64,000 nt of DNA from NCBI RefSeq assembly GCF_030406905.1, contig NZ_CP129137.1:3271001-3335000 (forward strand). The letters run 5' to 3'. A model generated the notes under the pieces. The model did not search any database and was not told the origin of the DNA. It saw only the letters and a list, made by a program, of their open reading frames with translations. The position numbers and the translations under genes were made by a program. Shown one piece after another: positions 59,060 through 64,000 of the stretch. Each line of letters opens with the position of its first letter. Within the stretch, counting starts at the first letter, position 1. This DNA is from Streptomyces sp. HUAS CB01. Its GTDB lineage: Bacteria > Actinomycetota > Actinomycetes > Streptomycetales > Streptomycetaceae.

Positions 59060-59132
59060 GCCTTCGTAGCTCAGGGGATAGAGCACCGCTCTCCTAAAGC
59101 GGGTGTCGCAGGTTCGAATCCTGCCGGGGGCA
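59060..59132 (+). tRNA. tRNA-Arg (anticodon CCT)
   Basis: Cloverleaf: acceptor GCCTTCG/CGGGGGC, D arm with AGCTCAGGGGATAGAGC, anticodon stem CCGCT/AGCGG with loop CTCCTAA (anticodon CCT, reading AGG), and T arm GCAGG/CCTGC with TTCGAAT. No CCA encoded. AGG is a rare codon here. tRNA genes of this kind are frequent integration sites, and the sequence character changes right after it. Confidence 0.97.
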
Positions 59133-59151
59133 CAGCGCATTACATCGCTGA

Positions 59152-59170
59152 CCTGGGTTTCCTCCCCAGG
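59152..59170 (+). terminator. Possible tRNA-Arg terminator
   Basis: A 6-bp stem CCTGGG/CCCAGG has a TTTCCTC loop, 19 nt after the tRNA end. Confidence 0.45.
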
Positions 59171-59178
59171 GAGGCGCT

Positions 59179-59439
59179 CTATTCGGCCTCGGACTCCTCG
59201 TCCGGGGCCGTTTGTGTGAGCGGTGCGTGAGCGGACGGGGAGTTGATCTCCCGAATATCGCCCAACGCATCAGCATCATCCGGCGCGGACACCGGGTCGG
59301 GCTTCTTCGCCTCGTCGGACTCTGGCTCCGCTTCGGGAGCGGTGTTCTCGGAGGTGGTGCGGGCACGCGGTACGAGCCGGGCTGCGGCCTCGGCGATCGC
59401 CAGATCCGCCTCGGGCAGCAGGCTCGGTGGATCCGGGTT
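59179..59439 (-). pseudogene. Truncated C-terminal reading frame of unknown gene
   Basis: On the minus strand a frame of about 86 codons runs from directly after the acyl carrier protein stop to a TAG at 59179, with no start codon of its own. It reads LLPEADLAIAEAAARLVPRA and then an acidic Pro/Glu/Asp tail ending DEESEAE. Codon use looks real. It resembles the tail of a protein carried on an integrating element, but I cannot name it. It lies between tRNA-Arg and the biosynthetic cassette and may mark an island boundary. Confidence 0.5.
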
Positions 59440-59736
59440 TTAGTACTCGACTTCGCGGAGCCGCTCTGGGCGCACCTTGGACTCCACGAAGGCCGCGAGC
59501 CGGCCGAGGGTGTCGAAGGTGTCACCGACGATCTCCATCTCGATCTCGATCCCGAACCGTTTCTGCAATGCGACGATGAGCTTGACGACGGTGAGCGAGT
59601 CGAGCTCAGGAAGACTGCCGTACAGTCCCGTCTCCGGCCCGAGGTCATCGGCCTGGTCCTCGATGTCCAGCGTGACCACCACGACGGCCTTGACGTCCTC
59701 GAAGATCGCCTGCGAAATCTCTGGCGAGCGAGTCAT
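59440..59736 (-). CDS. Acyl carrier protein
   Basis: This 98-aa carrier protein has the phosphopantetheine site at Ser47 in LPELDSLTVVKLI. That form of the motif (ELDS-x-xVV) is like the carrier proteins that accompany exosortase-A-type ligase/decarboxylase sets. The rest is the usual helical bundle (RFGIEIEMEIVGDTFDTLGRLAAFVE). The ATG at 59736 follows AGGAG by 7 nt. It is the last gene of a minus-strand cassette with a decarboxylase remnant and an acyl-AMP ligase, the likely loading partner. Confidence 0.9.
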   Translation of the reverse strand: MTRSPEISQAIFEDVKAVVVVTLDIEDQADDLGPETGLYGSLPELDSLTVVKLIVALQKRFGIEIEMEIVGDTFDTLGRLAAFVESKVRPERLREVEY

Positions 59737-59779
59737 ATGGCTTCTCCTCATCGGTCGTGCAGACCCGGCGGCCTGCGAT

Positions 59780-60438
59780 CTACACCAACACCTCCGTCGG
59801 TGTCGGATGCCCGAGGAACGCTGTGGGACTGGCCGTCATCCCGTAGGCGCGGGCCTGAAAGACCGCCACAAGGTCGCCGATCTCGCCACGCGGGAGGCAG
59901 ACATCACGTGCGAGCCGCCGCCGAGGCGCACGCCCGAGCCCTTGACCTGGAAGTCGGGGTTGACGCGGACCGCGACGCGGGGCCGCACACCCAGCCACTC
60001 CCCGATGGCCGCCACCCGCAACGCTTCAGTCTCCGATTCGAGGCTGATCGTCACCCTGGCCGCCACGGCGCGACTCAGCTCCGCAGGAGTCTTGCCTGGT
60101 TCTGCGAAGCTCACTCGGTCAGCGGCGAACGGCGTGTCCAGCGCGACAGCCTTCTCGCCTGCCGATGCAACATCGAAGCCGTCGACCTGCCTGCTGAAGT
60201 GCTGCACCCCGGCGGGCATCGGATCGGCCTTGACCGCGTGTCTGAGGTGGATGCCGTCCGGCAGGGCGCGGCGCAGTTCCTCGACACGCCGGGTGAGGCC
60301 GGTGCGCTCGTAGGTGAAGAACGGGGTGGCACCGGCGCGCTCAGCGAGCAACCCCACCGGAAGGCCGCCGATGCGGAGCATGCCGTCGGCGATCGCGAAC
60401 CGGCTGATCGTGGGGTGCGCGTAGGCGCCTGCGGTCAT
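59780..60438 (-). pseudogene. PLP-dependent decarboxylase (Orn/DAP/Arg family), internally deleted
   Basis: The first 175 residues match a group IV decarboxylase: FFTYERTGLTRRVEEL, the cofactor lysine Lys70 in HAVKADPMP, and PDFQVKGSGVRLGGG. The frame then runs into unrelated residues and stops. In the next frame the true C-terminus follows at once (ARDVCLPRGEIGDLVAVFQ, then GHPTPTEVLV, ending at 59780). About 190 central codons, with the dimer and substrate residues, are missing and the join is out of frame. The start overlaps the ligase stop by ATGA. The product cannot be active. Confidence 0.85.
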
Positions 60439-62030
60439 GCGGGCTCCTGAGGGCGGGAGGCGGTGAGCTCGTGGCGAAGGAATGCCCGGTCGAACTTGCC
60501 GTTCGGCGATCGGGGCAGGACACCAAGGACCACCACCTCGGCGGGCACCATGTAGCCGGGTAGTTCCTGCCGCAGGCGTGCGGTCACCGCGGCCGGGTCG
60601 AAGCCGGCGGGATCGCAGGGTGTCACGACGAGGACGACCCGGTGGCCAAGTGCCTCGTCCTCGAGGCCGAGCGCGACGGCATCGTGGACCAGGCCGGTCT
60701 CGTACGCCACTTCCTCGATCTCTTGCGGACTGACCCGATATCCCGATGTCTTGATCATGTCGTCACGCCGTCCGATGAAGTACAGGAAGCCCTCCTCGTC
60801 GCGGACGACGACATCGCCGGACCAGACCGCCAGTTCGGGCGTACACAGCTCGACCGGACGGTTCGGCGGCGGCCGGAACCGCTCGGCCGTGCGCTCCGCG
60901 TCATTCCAATAACCCAACGTGACAAGCGGACCTCGGTGCACCAGCTCACCCGGTTCTCCCGGACCACACAGGCCGCCGTCCTCCCGGACCACGAGGATCT
61001 CGGCATTCGGGATGGCCTTGCCGATCGAATCGGGCCGTCGGTCGACCTCCCGGGGATCGAGGTAGGTGGAGCGGAACGCCTCTGTCAGGCCGTACATCAG
61101 GTATGGCGTTGCGGTCGGGAAGATCGCTCGCAGTCGTTGCAGGGTAACGCGCGGGAGTCGCCCCCCAGTGTTTGCGAAGTAGCGCACCCCGGCCACGGCC
61201 TCGGACGGCCACGTCTGGGCTGCGAGCTGGATCCACAGCGGCGGTACGCCCACCAGCCCGGTGATGCGGTGCTTCGCGCACGCCCGGACGACATCCCCCG
61301 GCAGCAGGTAGTTGGCGAGCACCACATGGGCGCCGACGCAGAAGCCGGTCGTCAATTGGCTCAGTCCGGCGTCGAAGCTCAGCGGGAGAACGGCCAGGAT
61401 TCGGTCCTCCGCCGTGTTGTTCAGGTAAGTGCTGACGCTCTCCGCGCCGACGACGAGGTTGCGGTGCGACAGCACGACGCCCTTCGGGGCCCCGGTGCTC
61501 CCCGACGTGTAGAGGATCGCGGCCACATCCGTGTCGACGCCGCCCGTCGGAGGACACACGGCCTGGCTCGCGGTCTCGGCGACCTCCGACCAGGGGAGCA
61601 CGCGGTAAGGGGCTTCCTCGTCCTCAACAAGCGAGTCGCCCTGCACGAGGACGTGGGAGAGTGACTTGCAGGATGCGAGCTCGGCGCGCAGGGTCCGCAG
61701 CCGGTCCGTGGAGGTCACCAGTACCTGCACCGCGCAGTCGTCGAGGATGTGCCTCACTTGCCTGGCCCGCAGCACGGGATTCACCGGGACGAACACGCCA
61801 CCGGCCCGCGAGCAGGCGAGCAGCGCCACGACGGTCTCGATCCCCTTGTTGAGGAAGACCGCGACGCGCTCGCCACCATCGAGGCCGAGACCGCGCAGGC
61901 CGGCGGCCGCGAGCTCCGTCCGCTCGTGCAGTTCGGTGTAGGAGATCGTGGTCGTCCGTGCGGTCAGGGCGGGCGCGCCAGGGTTGCGTTGGGCGGACCT
62001 CGCAACGAGGTCCGGCAATCGGGTGATCAT
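60435..62030 (-). CDS. Acyl-AMP ligase (AMP-dependent synthetase), exosortase-A-associated type
   Basis: This 531-aa adenylate-forming enzyme is complete. Motifs: A3 ILYTSGSTGAPKGVVLSH, FANTGGRLP, LMYGLTEAFRST, WSGDVVVRDEEGFLYFIGRRDDMIKTSGYRVSPQEIEEV, and the catalytic lysine in SPNGKFDRAF. Its N-terminus (DLVARSAQRNPGAPALT) and the pairing with decarboxylase and carrier protein resemble the acyl-CoA ligases of exosortase A clusters. It probably loads an acid or amino acid onto the adjacent carrier protein. The ATG at 62030 has AAGGAA 8 nt upstream. It looks intact although both flanking genes are damaged. Confidence 0.9.
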   Translation of the reverse strand: MITRLPDLVARSAQRNPGAPALTARTTTISYTELHERTELAAAGLRGLGLDGGERVAVFLNKGIETVVALLACSRAGGVFVPVNPVLRARQVRHILDDCAVQVLVTSTDRLRTLRAELASCKSLSHVLVQGDSLVEDEEAPYRVLPWSEVAETASQAVCPPTGGVDTDVAAILYTSGSTGAPKGVVLSHRNLVVGAESVSTYLNNTAEDRILAVLPLSFDAGLSQLTTGFCVGAHVVLANYLLPGDVVRACAKHRITGLVGVPPLWIQLAAQTWPSEAVAGVRYFANTGGRLPRVTLQRLRAIFPTATPYLMYGLTEAFRSTYLDPREVDRRPDSIGKAIPNAEILVVREDGGLCGPGEPGELVHRGPLVTLGYWNDAERTAERFRPPPNRPVELCTPELAVWSGDVVVRDEEGFLYFIGRRDDMIKTSGYRVSPQEIEEVAYETGLVHDAVALGLEDEALGHRVVLVVTPCDPAGFDPAAVTARLRQELPGYMVPAEVVVLGVLPRSPNGKFDRAFLRHELTASRPQEPA

Positions 62031-63106
62031 TTCGGCGGATTCCTTTCTGCCGCTTTTGCCTGGCAGCCGACGAATCCCAGCCCTGTGCCCTGCGCCGGCT
62101 CGTCTCCGAGGGCAGGGCCAAATACGGCTCGATCGGTAGACACGTGCCACCGGCCTTGAAGATCGAGATGACGGAGGCCATCCAGTCCAGGCTCCGCTCG
62201 GTCACCACCGCGACCACGCCCTCGCGGCGCAGGCCACGCGCCAGCAGCGCCCGCGCCAGCTGGTTGGCGTGCGTTGAGCTCCCGGTAGGTCCACTGCTGC
62301 TGGTTGCGGTGCACGGCCGCGACGGCGTCCGGGTGCATCCGCACGCGCTGCTCGAACAGCTCGTGGAACCGGCGGTCCGGCAGCTCCCGGCGCGGCCCGG
62401 CCAGCCGGTAGAGCTGGAAGCGCGGCTCCTCGTCCGACGGCAGGCTCGCCCGCCCGTGCTCGGCGCCCGGGTCGGCGACCATCAGCGCGAGGGCGGTGAG
62501 GTGGTAGCCGGCGATCCTCTCGGCGCTGCCCGCGTCGAGCGCGTCGGTGCGGTAGTGCAGGTGCAGCGCGAGGCGGCCGCCGGGGGTCGCGAGCGCCACC
62601 CGGAGCACGGCGTCCTCGGCAAGGTCAGTGCTGATCTTGCCGCCGGTGTCGAGGCTGCCGATCCGGTCGAACTCGGTCTCGAACGCCGGCCCGGCCACGC
62701 CCAGCTCGCGCTTGAGCTCGTCCACCGCGAAGTCCCTGTGCTGGAGCAGGTCCGACTCGACCTGAGCGGTGTCCTGCAGCAGCGACCGCCGGGAGCGGGC
62801 TTCGGTCGTGAGCGGGCAGGGCAGCGGCCGCCCACCGGGCCTGGCCGCGTAGCCGATCACCACGTCCTGCTCGCCGGACAGCGCCGCCAGCACCTTCGAG
62901 TGCGCGGCCAGCGCCACCGAGTGCAGCGGCAGCTCCAGCTCATAGGCCAGCCGGCGCACGCCTGCCGCGAGGTCGTCATCAAGGGTCGCGACGTGCTCGG
63001 CGACGCCCGGTGCCGGGTCGAGCGTCCACCGCGGGATCGCGGCCGCGCCGCCCGCCCGCAGGACAGCCCGCCAGGACTCCCGGCCGGTTTCAACCCGATT
63101 GTCCAT
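62027..63106 (-). pseudogene. NRPS fragment: half condensation domain plus truncated, frameshifted adenylation domain
   Basis: From the ATG at 63106 (AGGGA upstream) the frame encodes the C-terminal lobe of a condensation-like domain, without the HHxxxDG lobe. It then enters an adenylation domain: FHELFEQRVRMHPDAVAAVHRNQQQWTYRELNA. At about 62270-62275 a two-base loss (one GC) shifts the frame. In the shifted frame the domain continues as NQLARALLARGLRREGVVAV and KAGGTCLPIEP, and ends near 62115. The rest of the A domain and any carrier domain are gone. Confidence 0.8.
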
Positions 63107-63139
63107 CGAATCGTCCCTACGTTCCACGTTTGCCCGGTG

Positions 63140-64000
63140 TCAGTCGCCGCGGACGAGCACGGCGGCGCAGTCGTCGAGACTGATCCCGCGCACCTGAAGG
63201 TCAGCCGACTGCTCGCGCATCTTCTTGGCGGGGTTTCCGCCCCACAGTTCGTGCGGTGGCATTTCCTCGCCCTTCATGAGGAAGGAGGCGGTGGCCAGCA
63301 CCGCGCCGTCGCCCATCGTCACGCCGTAGTGGACCCATGCGCCGACGCCGAGCGTGCAGCCGGCACCGATCGCGGTGCGGTCGGACTTGAATCCGCCGTC
63401 CTCCTGCGAGTGGCACTGGATGACGCTGTCCGCATTGAGGGTGCAGTCGTCGCCGACCGTGGCGAACGTCCGCTCGGGCGCGCGGAAGCCGTCGTCGAAG
63501 ACTCGGCGGCCGATTCGCATACCCGCCAGCCGCCAGAGCACGTTCTTGAGCGGGGTGCCGTTGAAAACGTTGAGATAGTTGTTGTTAGACAGCTTCCAGA
63601 AGCGTTCGTGCCGCCAGAAGGCGCGGTCGTAGATCGAGCAACCCTGCGGCCGCAAGGCCTGCAACGGCCGGATCAGCTGTTCGATCAGGACGTTGTAGGC
63701 GACAGTGAAGACGAAGATCCCGGCGGTGGCCAGTGCGAACGCGAGCACACCCAGGGAGGCCCAGAGGTCGATGGCGGCCAGGTAGAGCACCGTGCCGACG
63801 AAGAACAAGATCCAGCGCATCAGCAGCAACAACGCCATGGAGATGCTGTTGTGGACGTTCTTGGCCCGGAGGCGGTCGCGCAGCTCGTCCTCGCTATCCA
63901 CCTCCAGCTGCTGGTCGCGCTTGACCGACCGCGGGATCTCGAAGCTGGGCGCGCCGAGCAGGCCTACGCCTTCCCGCAGCTGTCCGTCGAGGGGAACCAA
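63140..64000 (-). CDS. Pls/PosA-type NRPS C-terminal region (partial, runs off right edge)
   Basis: The visible 286 residues are the end of a polylysine-synthetase-like NRPS or of a stand-alone relative. Membrane helices (ISMALLLLMRWILFFVGTVLYLAAIDLWASLGVLA and a second pair) are followed by CSIYDRAFWRHERFWKLSNNNYLNVFNGTPLKNVLWRLAGMRIGRRVFDDG and a hexapeptide-repeat part (VGDDCTLNADSVIQCHSQEDG, GAGCTLGVGAWVHYGVTMGDGAVL). In polylysine synthetase this tail makes the peptide bonds iteratively. The N-terminal part lies outside the window, so adenylation specificity is unknown. Confidence 0.85.
   Translation of the reverse strand: MVPLDGQLREGVGLLGAPSFEIPRSVKRDQQLEVDSEDELRDRLRAKNVHNSISMALLLLMRWILFFVGTVLYLAAIDLWASLGVLAFALATAGIFVFTVAYNVLIEQLIRPLQALRPQGCSIYDRAFWRHERFWKLSNNNYLNVFNGTPLKNVLWRLAGMRIGRRVFDDGFRAPERTFATVGDDCTLNADSVIQCHSQEDGGFKSDRTAIGAGCTLGVGAWVHYGVTMGDGAVLATASFLMKGEEMPPHELWGGNPAKKMREQSADLQVRGISLDDCAAVLVRGD

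What the first reader, a model, noticed from the sequence alone, without database searches (positions are those of the whole stretch)
59179..64000. Partly decayed NRPS / carrier protein / ligase / decarboxylase cassette next to tRNA-Arg
Seen: directly downstream of tRNA-Arg(CCT), all genes switch to one strand and to specialised metabolism. They are a Pls/PosA-type NRPS end, a half condensation domain, an acyl-AMP ligase, a decarboxylase and a carrier protein. Three frames are broken, two are intact. Known: exosortase A clusters pair this kind of ligase, decarboxylase and carrier protein; Pls-type NRPSs make homo-poly-amino acids. Inference: this may be an island in which a ligase/decarboxylase/carrier module was attached to an iterative NRPS and is now being lost, or a minimal ligase plus carrier system that has been kept.
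Basis: partly seen in the sequence, partly recalled or inferred. Interest (0 to 1): 0.7.

Follow-up and report, generated by a model that had tools for sequence, protein, structure and literature searches.

The report
Ligase-fed, adenylation-less polyamino-acid synthase cassette
Soil actinobacteria keep a small gene set in which a polymer-making membrane enzyme of the polylysine-synthase type has no amino-acid loading domain of its own and is paired instead with a separate ligase and a small carrier protein; the copy in this window is real and shared, but partly stripped.

Summary
The genes are there, but I find no support for a decaying tRNA island. The "Pls/PosA end" is an open 1,041-aa frame that runs past the window: three near-identical carrier domains plus a Pls-type membrane polymerase domain, no adenylation domain. 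Ligase and small carrier protein are intact. Two genes are broken: a half-C-A-PCP NRPS and the decarboxylase. The half condensation domain is native to that NRPS family.

Orthologous cassettes occur in Streptomyces, Amycolatopsis and Pseudonocardia. One Pseudonocardia keeps a fuller order, PLS-NRPS-TauD-OCD-CysS-ligase-ACP: a diaminopropionate-type cluster joined to a ligase/(decarboxylase)/ACP trio. Eight streamlined loci, the window's among them, lost full NRPS, OCD, CysS and decarboxylase but keep PLS, ligase and ACP (8/8) and TauD (7/8; not the window). Over the clade, ligase and TauD show purifying selection. All eight genomes hold a complete five-gene cluster elsewhere.

Best reading: a split Pls-type synthase loaded in trans by a captured ligase/ACP pair, possibly helped by the resident cluster. 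The window copy is further reduced and its PLS evolves at a neutral-like ratio, yet it changes none of 171 invariant positions. New variant of a known kind; product unknown.

The parts
59060..59133 (+). tRNA-Arg (CCT); a neighbour, probably not part of the system
   Evidence: ARAGORN; no repeat of its 3' end within 58 kb to the right
59440..59751 (-). Small acyl/aminoacyl carrier protein (ACP), 103 aa, intact, with the attachment serine in LPELDSL
   Evidence: PF00550; serine kept and frame open in 9 of 9 cassette loci; found in 9 of 9
59783..59926 (-). C-terminal remnant of the PLP decarboxylase, in another frame
   Evidence: tblastn with an intact decarboxylase, residues 361-408, 65% identical
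59836..60438 (-). N-terminal remnant of the PLP decarboxylase (TIGR03099 type); about 190 middle codons are missing
60435..62030 (-). AMP-forming ligase (TIGR03098, 'exosortase A-associated'), 531 aa, intact
   Evidence: 93-94% identical orthologues in 3 other genomes of the genus; conserved positions and pocket kept
62125..63106 (-). Remnant of a half-C-A-PCP NRPS: half condensation domain and the first about 100 residues of the A domain, frame broken near 62267; the rest of A and the PCP are gone
   Evidence: tblastn with the intact paralogue L013; intact homologue L199
63140..64000 (-). C-terminal part of the PCP(x3)-Pls-type polymerase protein (PLS); the gene continues to window-scale coordinate 66265 (L009:6140-9265)
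   Evidence: TIGR02353 over its cut-off, three PP-binding domains; AlphaFold model with three carrier domains, long helices in three pairs and three beta-rich blocks

Best explanation
The cassette is a split, membrane-bound polyamino-acid synthase of the Pls type. The polymerase protein carries three tandem carrier domains but no adenylation domain. The monomer-activating job has passed to a captured, exosortase-type AMP ligase that charges the stand-alone carrier protein with a carboxylic, probably amino, acid. The charged group is then passed to the carrier array and joined by the three-beta-helix membrane domain. Shown: the anatomy; the shared descent of PLS and ligase; the open frames; purifying selection on ligase and TauD over the clade; loss of the decarboxylase, the local NRPS and the Dap genes in the streamlined loci. 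Inferred: that the ligase charges this ACP (from the VinN/VinL precedent and the kept gene pairing), that the ACP feeds the PLS carriers, and that a polymer or oligomer is made. The window copy is a more reduced member (TauD gone) that may be at the edge of decay.
For: PLS, ligase and ACP frames are open in 9 of 9 cassette loci (in G144 the start of PLS lies off the contig, in G216 its carrier array holds a run of N), while a full-length decarboxylase is found in 0 of 9 and a full NRPS in 1 of 9. In loci of other bacteria with the same ligase type, 68 of 71 with room have a decarboxylase match of over 250 residues within 3 kb. A-less PLS database hits of 70% identity or more on contigs of 10 kb or more share their contig length with the ACP or ligase lists in 19 of 41 cases (2 of the 19 are the own genome), against 0 of 12 A-fused and 0 of 28 more distant A-less ones (a full recount). 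In the PLS tree the 9 cassette rows, with 4 further A-less database rows, form one supported group nested among A-fused proteins, so the A domain was probably lost on the branch where the ligase appears (rooted at the midpoint). The ligase tree gives the same Streptomyces and Amycolatopsis subgroups. Median dN/dS: ligase 0.24, TauD 0.33, ACP 0.43, PLS 0.52. Window ligase: 1 deviation at 137 positions conserved in 73 relatives, and that one is shared by all 9 cassettes. Window PLS: 0 deviations at 171 invariant positions despite 68 unique nonsynonymous changes; about 3e-8 by chance. Precedents: VinN loads a stand-alone ACP (PMC11284099, passages); an A-less NRPS module borrows another module's A domain (PMC12400406, start of the abstract in a search listing).
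Against: No biochemistry. All 8 streamlined genomes hold a complete PLS-NRPS-TauD-OCD-CysS cluster elsewhere, so an NRPS in trans could load PLS and the ligase could do something else. In the window lineage (and in G216) the PLS change ratio is neutral-like: 68 N to 23 S observed, 63.6 to 25.1 plus 2.2 stops simulated, probability of no stop 0.107. Cassette PLS has a higher median dN/dS (0.52) than PLS of ligase-free clusters (0.38). For the window's own ligase branch the counts (12 N, 9 S) are too few to show selection alone. In G234 and G144 the last few residues of PLS, beyond the TIGR02353 domain, are in another frame. TauD is missing in the window copy. Many A-less PLS outside this clade sit beside an NRPS and have no ligase nearby.
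Confidence: 0.5

Rival explanations
1. Satellite cassette: PLS (with TauD where kept) is loaded by the NRPS and fed with diaminopropionate by the complete resident cluster, and the ligase/ACP pair adds a second acid, as a cap or second monomer, so the product is a mixed polymer. Genes redundant with the resident cluster could then be dropped.
For: All 8 streamlined genomes hold a complete five-gene cluster elsewhere. Base rates of that NRPS at E <= 1e-280 are 43 of 150 in the genus (2 of the 43 are carriers) and 23 of 200 in the family of Amycolatopsis taiwanensis (1 of the 23 a carrier). The lost NRPS, OCD and CysS are all present in the resident cluster. In S. albulus the Dap genes are not near the synthase gene, so supply from a distant locus has a precedent (PMC4668381 section 7).
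Against: Relatedness: the 8 genomes are not independent. Resident PLS are only 50-59% identical to the window's PLS. TauD is also present in the resident cluster, yet kept in 7 of 8 cassettes.
Confidence: 0.27
2. The window copy is a dying remnant of a once-working cassette; the intact frames are simply not yet broken.
For: NRPS, decarboxylase and TauD are lost here; PLS N/S ratio is neutral-like on the window lineage, with changes piled up in its C-terminal half.
Against: 0 of 171 invariant PLS positions changed; six further database proteins 96-99.9% identical to the window PLS deviate at 0 or 1 of these positions; ligase 136 of 137; ACP 1 N to 3 S changes on its branch, a small count.
Confidence: 0.18
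3. Genomic island inserted at tRNA-Arg.
For: The cassette starts about 300 bp from the tRNA; a short stretch after the tRNA also occurs in other genomes.
Against: No 3'-end repeat to 58 kb; nearest tyrosine-integrase match about 311 kb away; three sister cassettes checked lack a tRNA in their loci.
Confidence: 0.05

Closest known systems
Pls/PosA-family synthetases (epsilon-poly-lysine, delta-poly-ornithine, poly-diaminopropionate synthetases; TIGR02353)
   Same: Same about 700-residue terminal domain: membrane helices in three pairs and three left-handed beta-helices (PMC10522769 section 13)
   Different: No adenylation domain; three nearly identical carrier domains instead of one; separate ligase and ACP
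PLS-NRPS-TauD-OCD-CysS clusters of actinobacteria (own genome C1:5.31 Mb and others; the name is mine)
   Same: Same gene families and order; OCD and CysS homologues make L-diaminopropionate in S. albulus (PMC4668381, abstract and section 7)
   Different: Streamlined cassettes lost NRPS, OCD and CysS and carry ligase and ACP
'Exosortase A-associated' ligase/decarboxylase/ACP trio (TIGR03098/TIGR03099)
   Same: Same ligase family, similar pocket residues and gene order ligase-decarboxylase-ACP
   Different: Decarboxylase destroyed; no exosortase match in the genome; PLS as partner
VinN/VinL/VinO loading of beta-amino acids in vicenistatin biosynthesis
   Same: A ligase charging a stand-alone ACP, with a PLP decarboxylase acting on the charged ACP (PMC11284099, passages)
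   Different: No type I PKS acceptor seen; decarboxylase lost; ligase belongs to the TIGR03098 family

Membership tests
Pls/PosA-type synthetase | TIGR02353 terminal domain over the curated cut-off | tested here: met
   696 bits against 423.1
Pls/PosA-type synthetase | Three helix pairs and three beta-helices | tested here: met
   AlphaFold model, mean pLDDT 77, pTM 0.67; hexapeptide-fold acetyltransferases lead the PDB matches
Pls/PosA-type synthetase | N-terminal adenylation domain in the same protein | tested here: not met
   No AMP-binding domain in the 1,041-aa ORF
Pls/PosA-type synthetase | Makes a homopolymer of a diamino acid | not testable with these tools
   No assay possible
Exosortase A-associated ligase/decarboxylase system | Ligase TIGR03098 over cut-off | tested here: met
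   759.8 against 592.35 bits
Exosortase A-associated ligase/decarboxylase system | Intact decarboxylase TIGR03099 beside it | tested here: not met
   Only positions 1-164 of 398 plus a shifted remnant; 0 of 9 cassettes
Exosortase A-associated ligase/decarboxylase system | Exosortase in the genome | tested here: not met
   PF09721: 0 matches
VinN/VinL/VinO-type loading trio | ATP-dependent ligase that charges a stand-alone ACP with an amino acid | not testable with these tools
   Gene pair and the amino-acid-binding Asp (place recalled) present; activity unknown
VinN/VinL/VinO-type loading trio | Working PLP decarboxylase | tested here: not met
   Middle part deleted
tRNA-borne genomic island | Direct repeat of the tRNA 3' end | tested here: not met
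tRNA-borne genomic island | Integrase nearby | tested here: not met
   Tyrosine integrases only; nearest about 311 kb away

The most novel reading that the evidence does not exclude
A two-locus natural-product system: a streamlined 'satellite' cassette (PLS with an amplified carrier array, TauD, ligase, ACP) that has shed the genes its resident diaminopropionate-polymer cluster supplies, persists only in genomes that hold that cluster, and mixes the resident monomer with a ligase-loaded acid to make a new copolymer.
Probability: 0.25. Interest if true: 0.75.

Novelty: new variant of a known kind. Interest (0 to 1): 0.55.

Why it matters
Pls-type synthases make antimicrobial cationic polymers, and their monomer choice is set by a fused adenylation domain. 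A natural clade in which that domain is gone and a free ligase plus carrier stands in for it would show how such synthases change monomer, and makes in-trans loading of a membrane polymerase directly testable. The tandem carrier array (up to 6 copies among 120 database relatives; often near-identical within a genome) is also a good case of concerted evolution of carrier domains. The constant presence of a complete second cluster raises the testable idea of biosynthetic loci that depend on each other.

Tried and rejected
Rejected: (1) tRNA island. (2) Exosortase system. (3) 'Half condensation domain = decay': native in the intact NRPS family. (4) Pls gene broken: only cut by the window edge. 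(5) Plasmid origin: 99 plasmid records match, none covers 80% of the query; the 15 records listed are from Sinorhizobium and Aureimonas, and where annotated match the ligase or decarboxylase; the other 84, among them 11 Streptomyces and 4 Pseudonocardia, were not looked at.

Led nowhere: paper searches for TIGR02353 (0 papers), for exosortase with acyl-CoA ligase, decarboxylase and acyl carrier protein (0), for exosortase with PEP-CTERM, ligase and decarboxylase (2 papers, listing only), for homopoly amino acid with stand-alone adenylation (1,765 papers, 15 listed, none by title on an A-less Pls), for poly-beta-lysine (1). That I saw no report of an A-less, ligase-paired Pls rests on the listings only, all in an open-licence library. 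The 185-aa ORF right of PLS has no Pfam match over a cut-off. A class-wide search (394 genomes) found PLS at E <= 1e-150 in 16 genomes and, besides the window's, no match above 60% identity.

Limits: dN/dS by Nei-Gojobori written in a script; in GC-rich genomes dS is likely too low, so the ratios are upper bounds (my judgement). Singleton changes are called among four genomes and not fully polarised. ACP alignments are short. The script stopped half-way on a missing start motif; its PLS part was redone. Of 28 PLS places listed, 17 were looked at with context (16 fetched, and L063); 11 were not. My first contig-length count (19 of 40, 0 of 12, 0 of 24) left out rows of 10 kb or more and misfiled one; one search recounts all such rows of the 120 listed. 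The ACP and ligase lists are themselves cut at 120 rows, so these counts are lower bounds. 'Ligase absent' in ligase-free loci means absent from the 10.5-20 kb stretch fetched.
Full report
What is in the window. Right of tRNA-Arg(CCT) (59060-59133) all relevant genes are on the minus strand. In order of transcription: PLS (from beyond the window, L009:6140-9265, to 63140), an NRPS remnant (62125-63106), the ligase (60435-62030), a decarboxylase remnant (59836-60438 and 59783-59926) and the ACP (59440-59751). The window is C1:3271001-3335000 of an 8.1-Mb genome. It is most likely a Streptomyces: a genome of the same genus (G216) has a contig of exactly the length listed for Streptomyces sp. BK239.

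The Pls-type protein is whole. It has three PP-binding domains followed by the full TIGR02353 terminal domain, 696 bits against a cut-off of 423.1, and no AMP-binding domain. An AlphaFold model (mean pLDDT 77, pTM 0.67) shows three small helical carrier domains, long helices in three pairs, and three beta-rich blocks. Hexapeptide acetyltransferases lead the Foldseek matches. This is the arrangement modelled for PosA (PMC10522769, section 13). The three carrier copies are 98.6-100% identical in DNA. Across six cassettes, copies within a genome are 83-100% alike and copies between genomes 70-88%; the two ranges overlap only through G919 (83-92% within). Among the 120 best database relatives the number of carrier domains is 0 (11 proteins), 1 (33), 2 (36), 3 (33), 4 (6) or 6 (1); several of these proteins are named partial.

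Two genes are truly broken. The NRPS remnant aligns to an intact 837-aa half-C-A-PCP paralogue of the same genome (residues 1-274 in one frame, 275-322 in another; no further match before the ligase). The half condensation domain is native: an intact relative has the same partial PF00668 match. The decarboxylase keeps residues 17-171 and, in another frame, 361-408 of an intact homologue.

Relatives. Searching 295 genomes of the genus with the ligase gave 93-94% matches in three genomes besides the own one (G234, G144, G216; the next is 61%). Searching 392 with the PLS terminal part at E <= 1e-300 gave the same four genomes at 84% or more; the other three are at 60-61%. A named scan found the ligase at 90% in Amycolatopsis taiwanensis. 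In 390 genomes of that family, PLS above the limit was found in 24 genomes (28 places), 17 of which I examined with context. Nine cassette loci result: G000 (the window), G234, G216, G144, A. taiwanensis, G869, G919, G915 and G1056a.

The fuller form. G1056a reads PLS - NRPS - TauD - OCD - CysS - ligase - ACP on one strand. OCD and CysS are homologues of the ornithine-cyclodeaminase- and cysteine-synthase-like enzymes that make L-diaminopropionate in S. albulus (PMC4668381, abstract and sections 4 and 7). The other eight lack full NRPS, OCD and CysS; CysS relics lie between TauD and ligase in G869 and G919. TauD is intact in seven of these eight, and the window copy is the one without it. The TauD alignment of 16 proteins (8 cassette, 8 other) keeps a His-x-Glu and a distal His, the expected iron ligands (motif recalled). 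PLS caveats: in G144 the gene's start is off the contig, in G216 the carrier array holds a run of N, and in G234 and G144 the last few residues, beyond the TIGR02353 domain, are in another frame.

Loss of the decarboxylase. The relics differ between loci: N-terminal plus C-terminal pieces in G000; C-terminal pieces in G869, G919, G915, A. taiwanensis and G216; an N-terminal piece in G234; none found in G144 and G1056a (some of these matches are weak). So the gene, working or not, was longer in the common ancestor and was trimmed along separate lines. In loci of other bacteria with this ligase type, 68 of 71 with room downstream (70 of all 79) have a decarboxylase match of over 250 residues within 3 kb, and 43 of 79 an ACP match within 4 kb. 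Outside the cassette clade, a ligase of at least 45% identity is absent from 27 of 27 PLS or NRPS stretches examined: 15, 3 own paralogues and 9 resident clusters.

Descent. In an IQ-TREE of 42 PLS terminal domains the nine cassette rows are one group (100/99) together with four further A-less database proteins, nested next to A-fused proteins; within it G1056a branches first (midpoint root). The ligase tree (84 rows, FastTree) has the cassette ligases as one group (100) beside actinobacterial trio ligases, with the same Streptomyces and Amycolatopsis subgroups. So PLS and ligase have travelled together.

Selection. Median pairwise dN/dS: ligase 0.24 (36 pairs), ACP 0.43 (36; range 0.19-1.17), TauD 0.33 (28), PLS 0.52 (36); in ligase-free clusters: PLS 0.38 (28), TauD 0.38 (28). 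So cassette PLS is less constrained than its relatives. Changes unique to one of the four Streptomyces: PLS of G234 16 N: 17 S and of G144 15: 19 are well below neutral expectation; PLS of the window 68: 23 and of G216 57: 22 are not. Against this, none of the window's PLS residues departs from 171 columns that are invariant in 35 other proteins; the chance for 68 random changes is about 3e-8. The window's PLS is thus fast-evolving but still constrained at its core, or became free only recently.

Specificity. The ligase keeps the Asp that binds the amino group in amino-acid-activating domains, and an Arg of the pocket is present in 9 of 9 cassette and 73 of 73 trio ligases. The pocket numbering was placed by motifs that I recalled. 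This fits an amino acid with an acidic side chain, but that is inference.

The resident cluster. All eight streamlined genomes hold at least one complete PLS-NRPS-TauD-OCD-CysS cluster elsewhere; in G144 a second one has its CysS cut by the contig end. The NRPS at E <= 1e-280 is found in 43 of 150 genomes of the genus (2 of them carriers) and 23 of 200 of the Amycolatopsis family (1 a carrier). The association is stronger than these base rates suggest, but the eight genomes are related, so I treat it as a lead for the satellite model, not proof.

Surroundings. To the right are two ketoacyl-synthase genes next to an ACP-like ORF, with polyketide cyclases, a flavin oxygenase and a KAS III. I read this as a type II polyketide cluster (KS-alpha/KS-beta assigned by eye), unrelated to the cassette. 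The tRNA link looks incidental: no repeat of its 3' end to 58 kb and no tyrosine integrase near.

Verdict. A real, recurrent gene set and a new variant of the Pls kind; function inferred, product unknown.

Noticed in passing
L009:11056-20000, L010, L058 (window-scale 68056 onward): What looks like a type II polyketide cluster (two ketoacyl synthases, KAS III, cyclases, flavin oxygenase; sugar genes by eye) starts about 2 kb right of the cassette.
   Followed up: partly
Own genome C1:5.31 Mb (L011), C1:7.00 Mb (L012), C1:0.41 Mb (L013): Three more loci of the family: a full PLS-NRPS-TauD-OCD-CysS cluster, a two-carrier PLS without the other genes nearby, and an NRPS-TauD-OCD-CysS set without PLS.
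   Followed up: partly
window 59134-59430: A short stretch after tRNA-Arg also occurs after the same tRNA in G009 (82%) and partly in other genomes; it looks like the tail of an unknown gene.
   Followed up: partly
L201:11986-13218: An IS110-type transposase sits between TauD and ligase in the G919 cassette, where a CysS relic also lies.
   Followed up: yes
L055:11159-14143: The G216 PLS carrier array contains a run of N, probably an assembly gap caused by near-identical repeats.
   Followed up: no
   Followed up: no
L009:9850-10407: A 185-aa minus-strand ORF between PLS and the polyketide genes has no Pfam match over a cut-off and lower GC at third positions; origin unknown.
   Followed up: no
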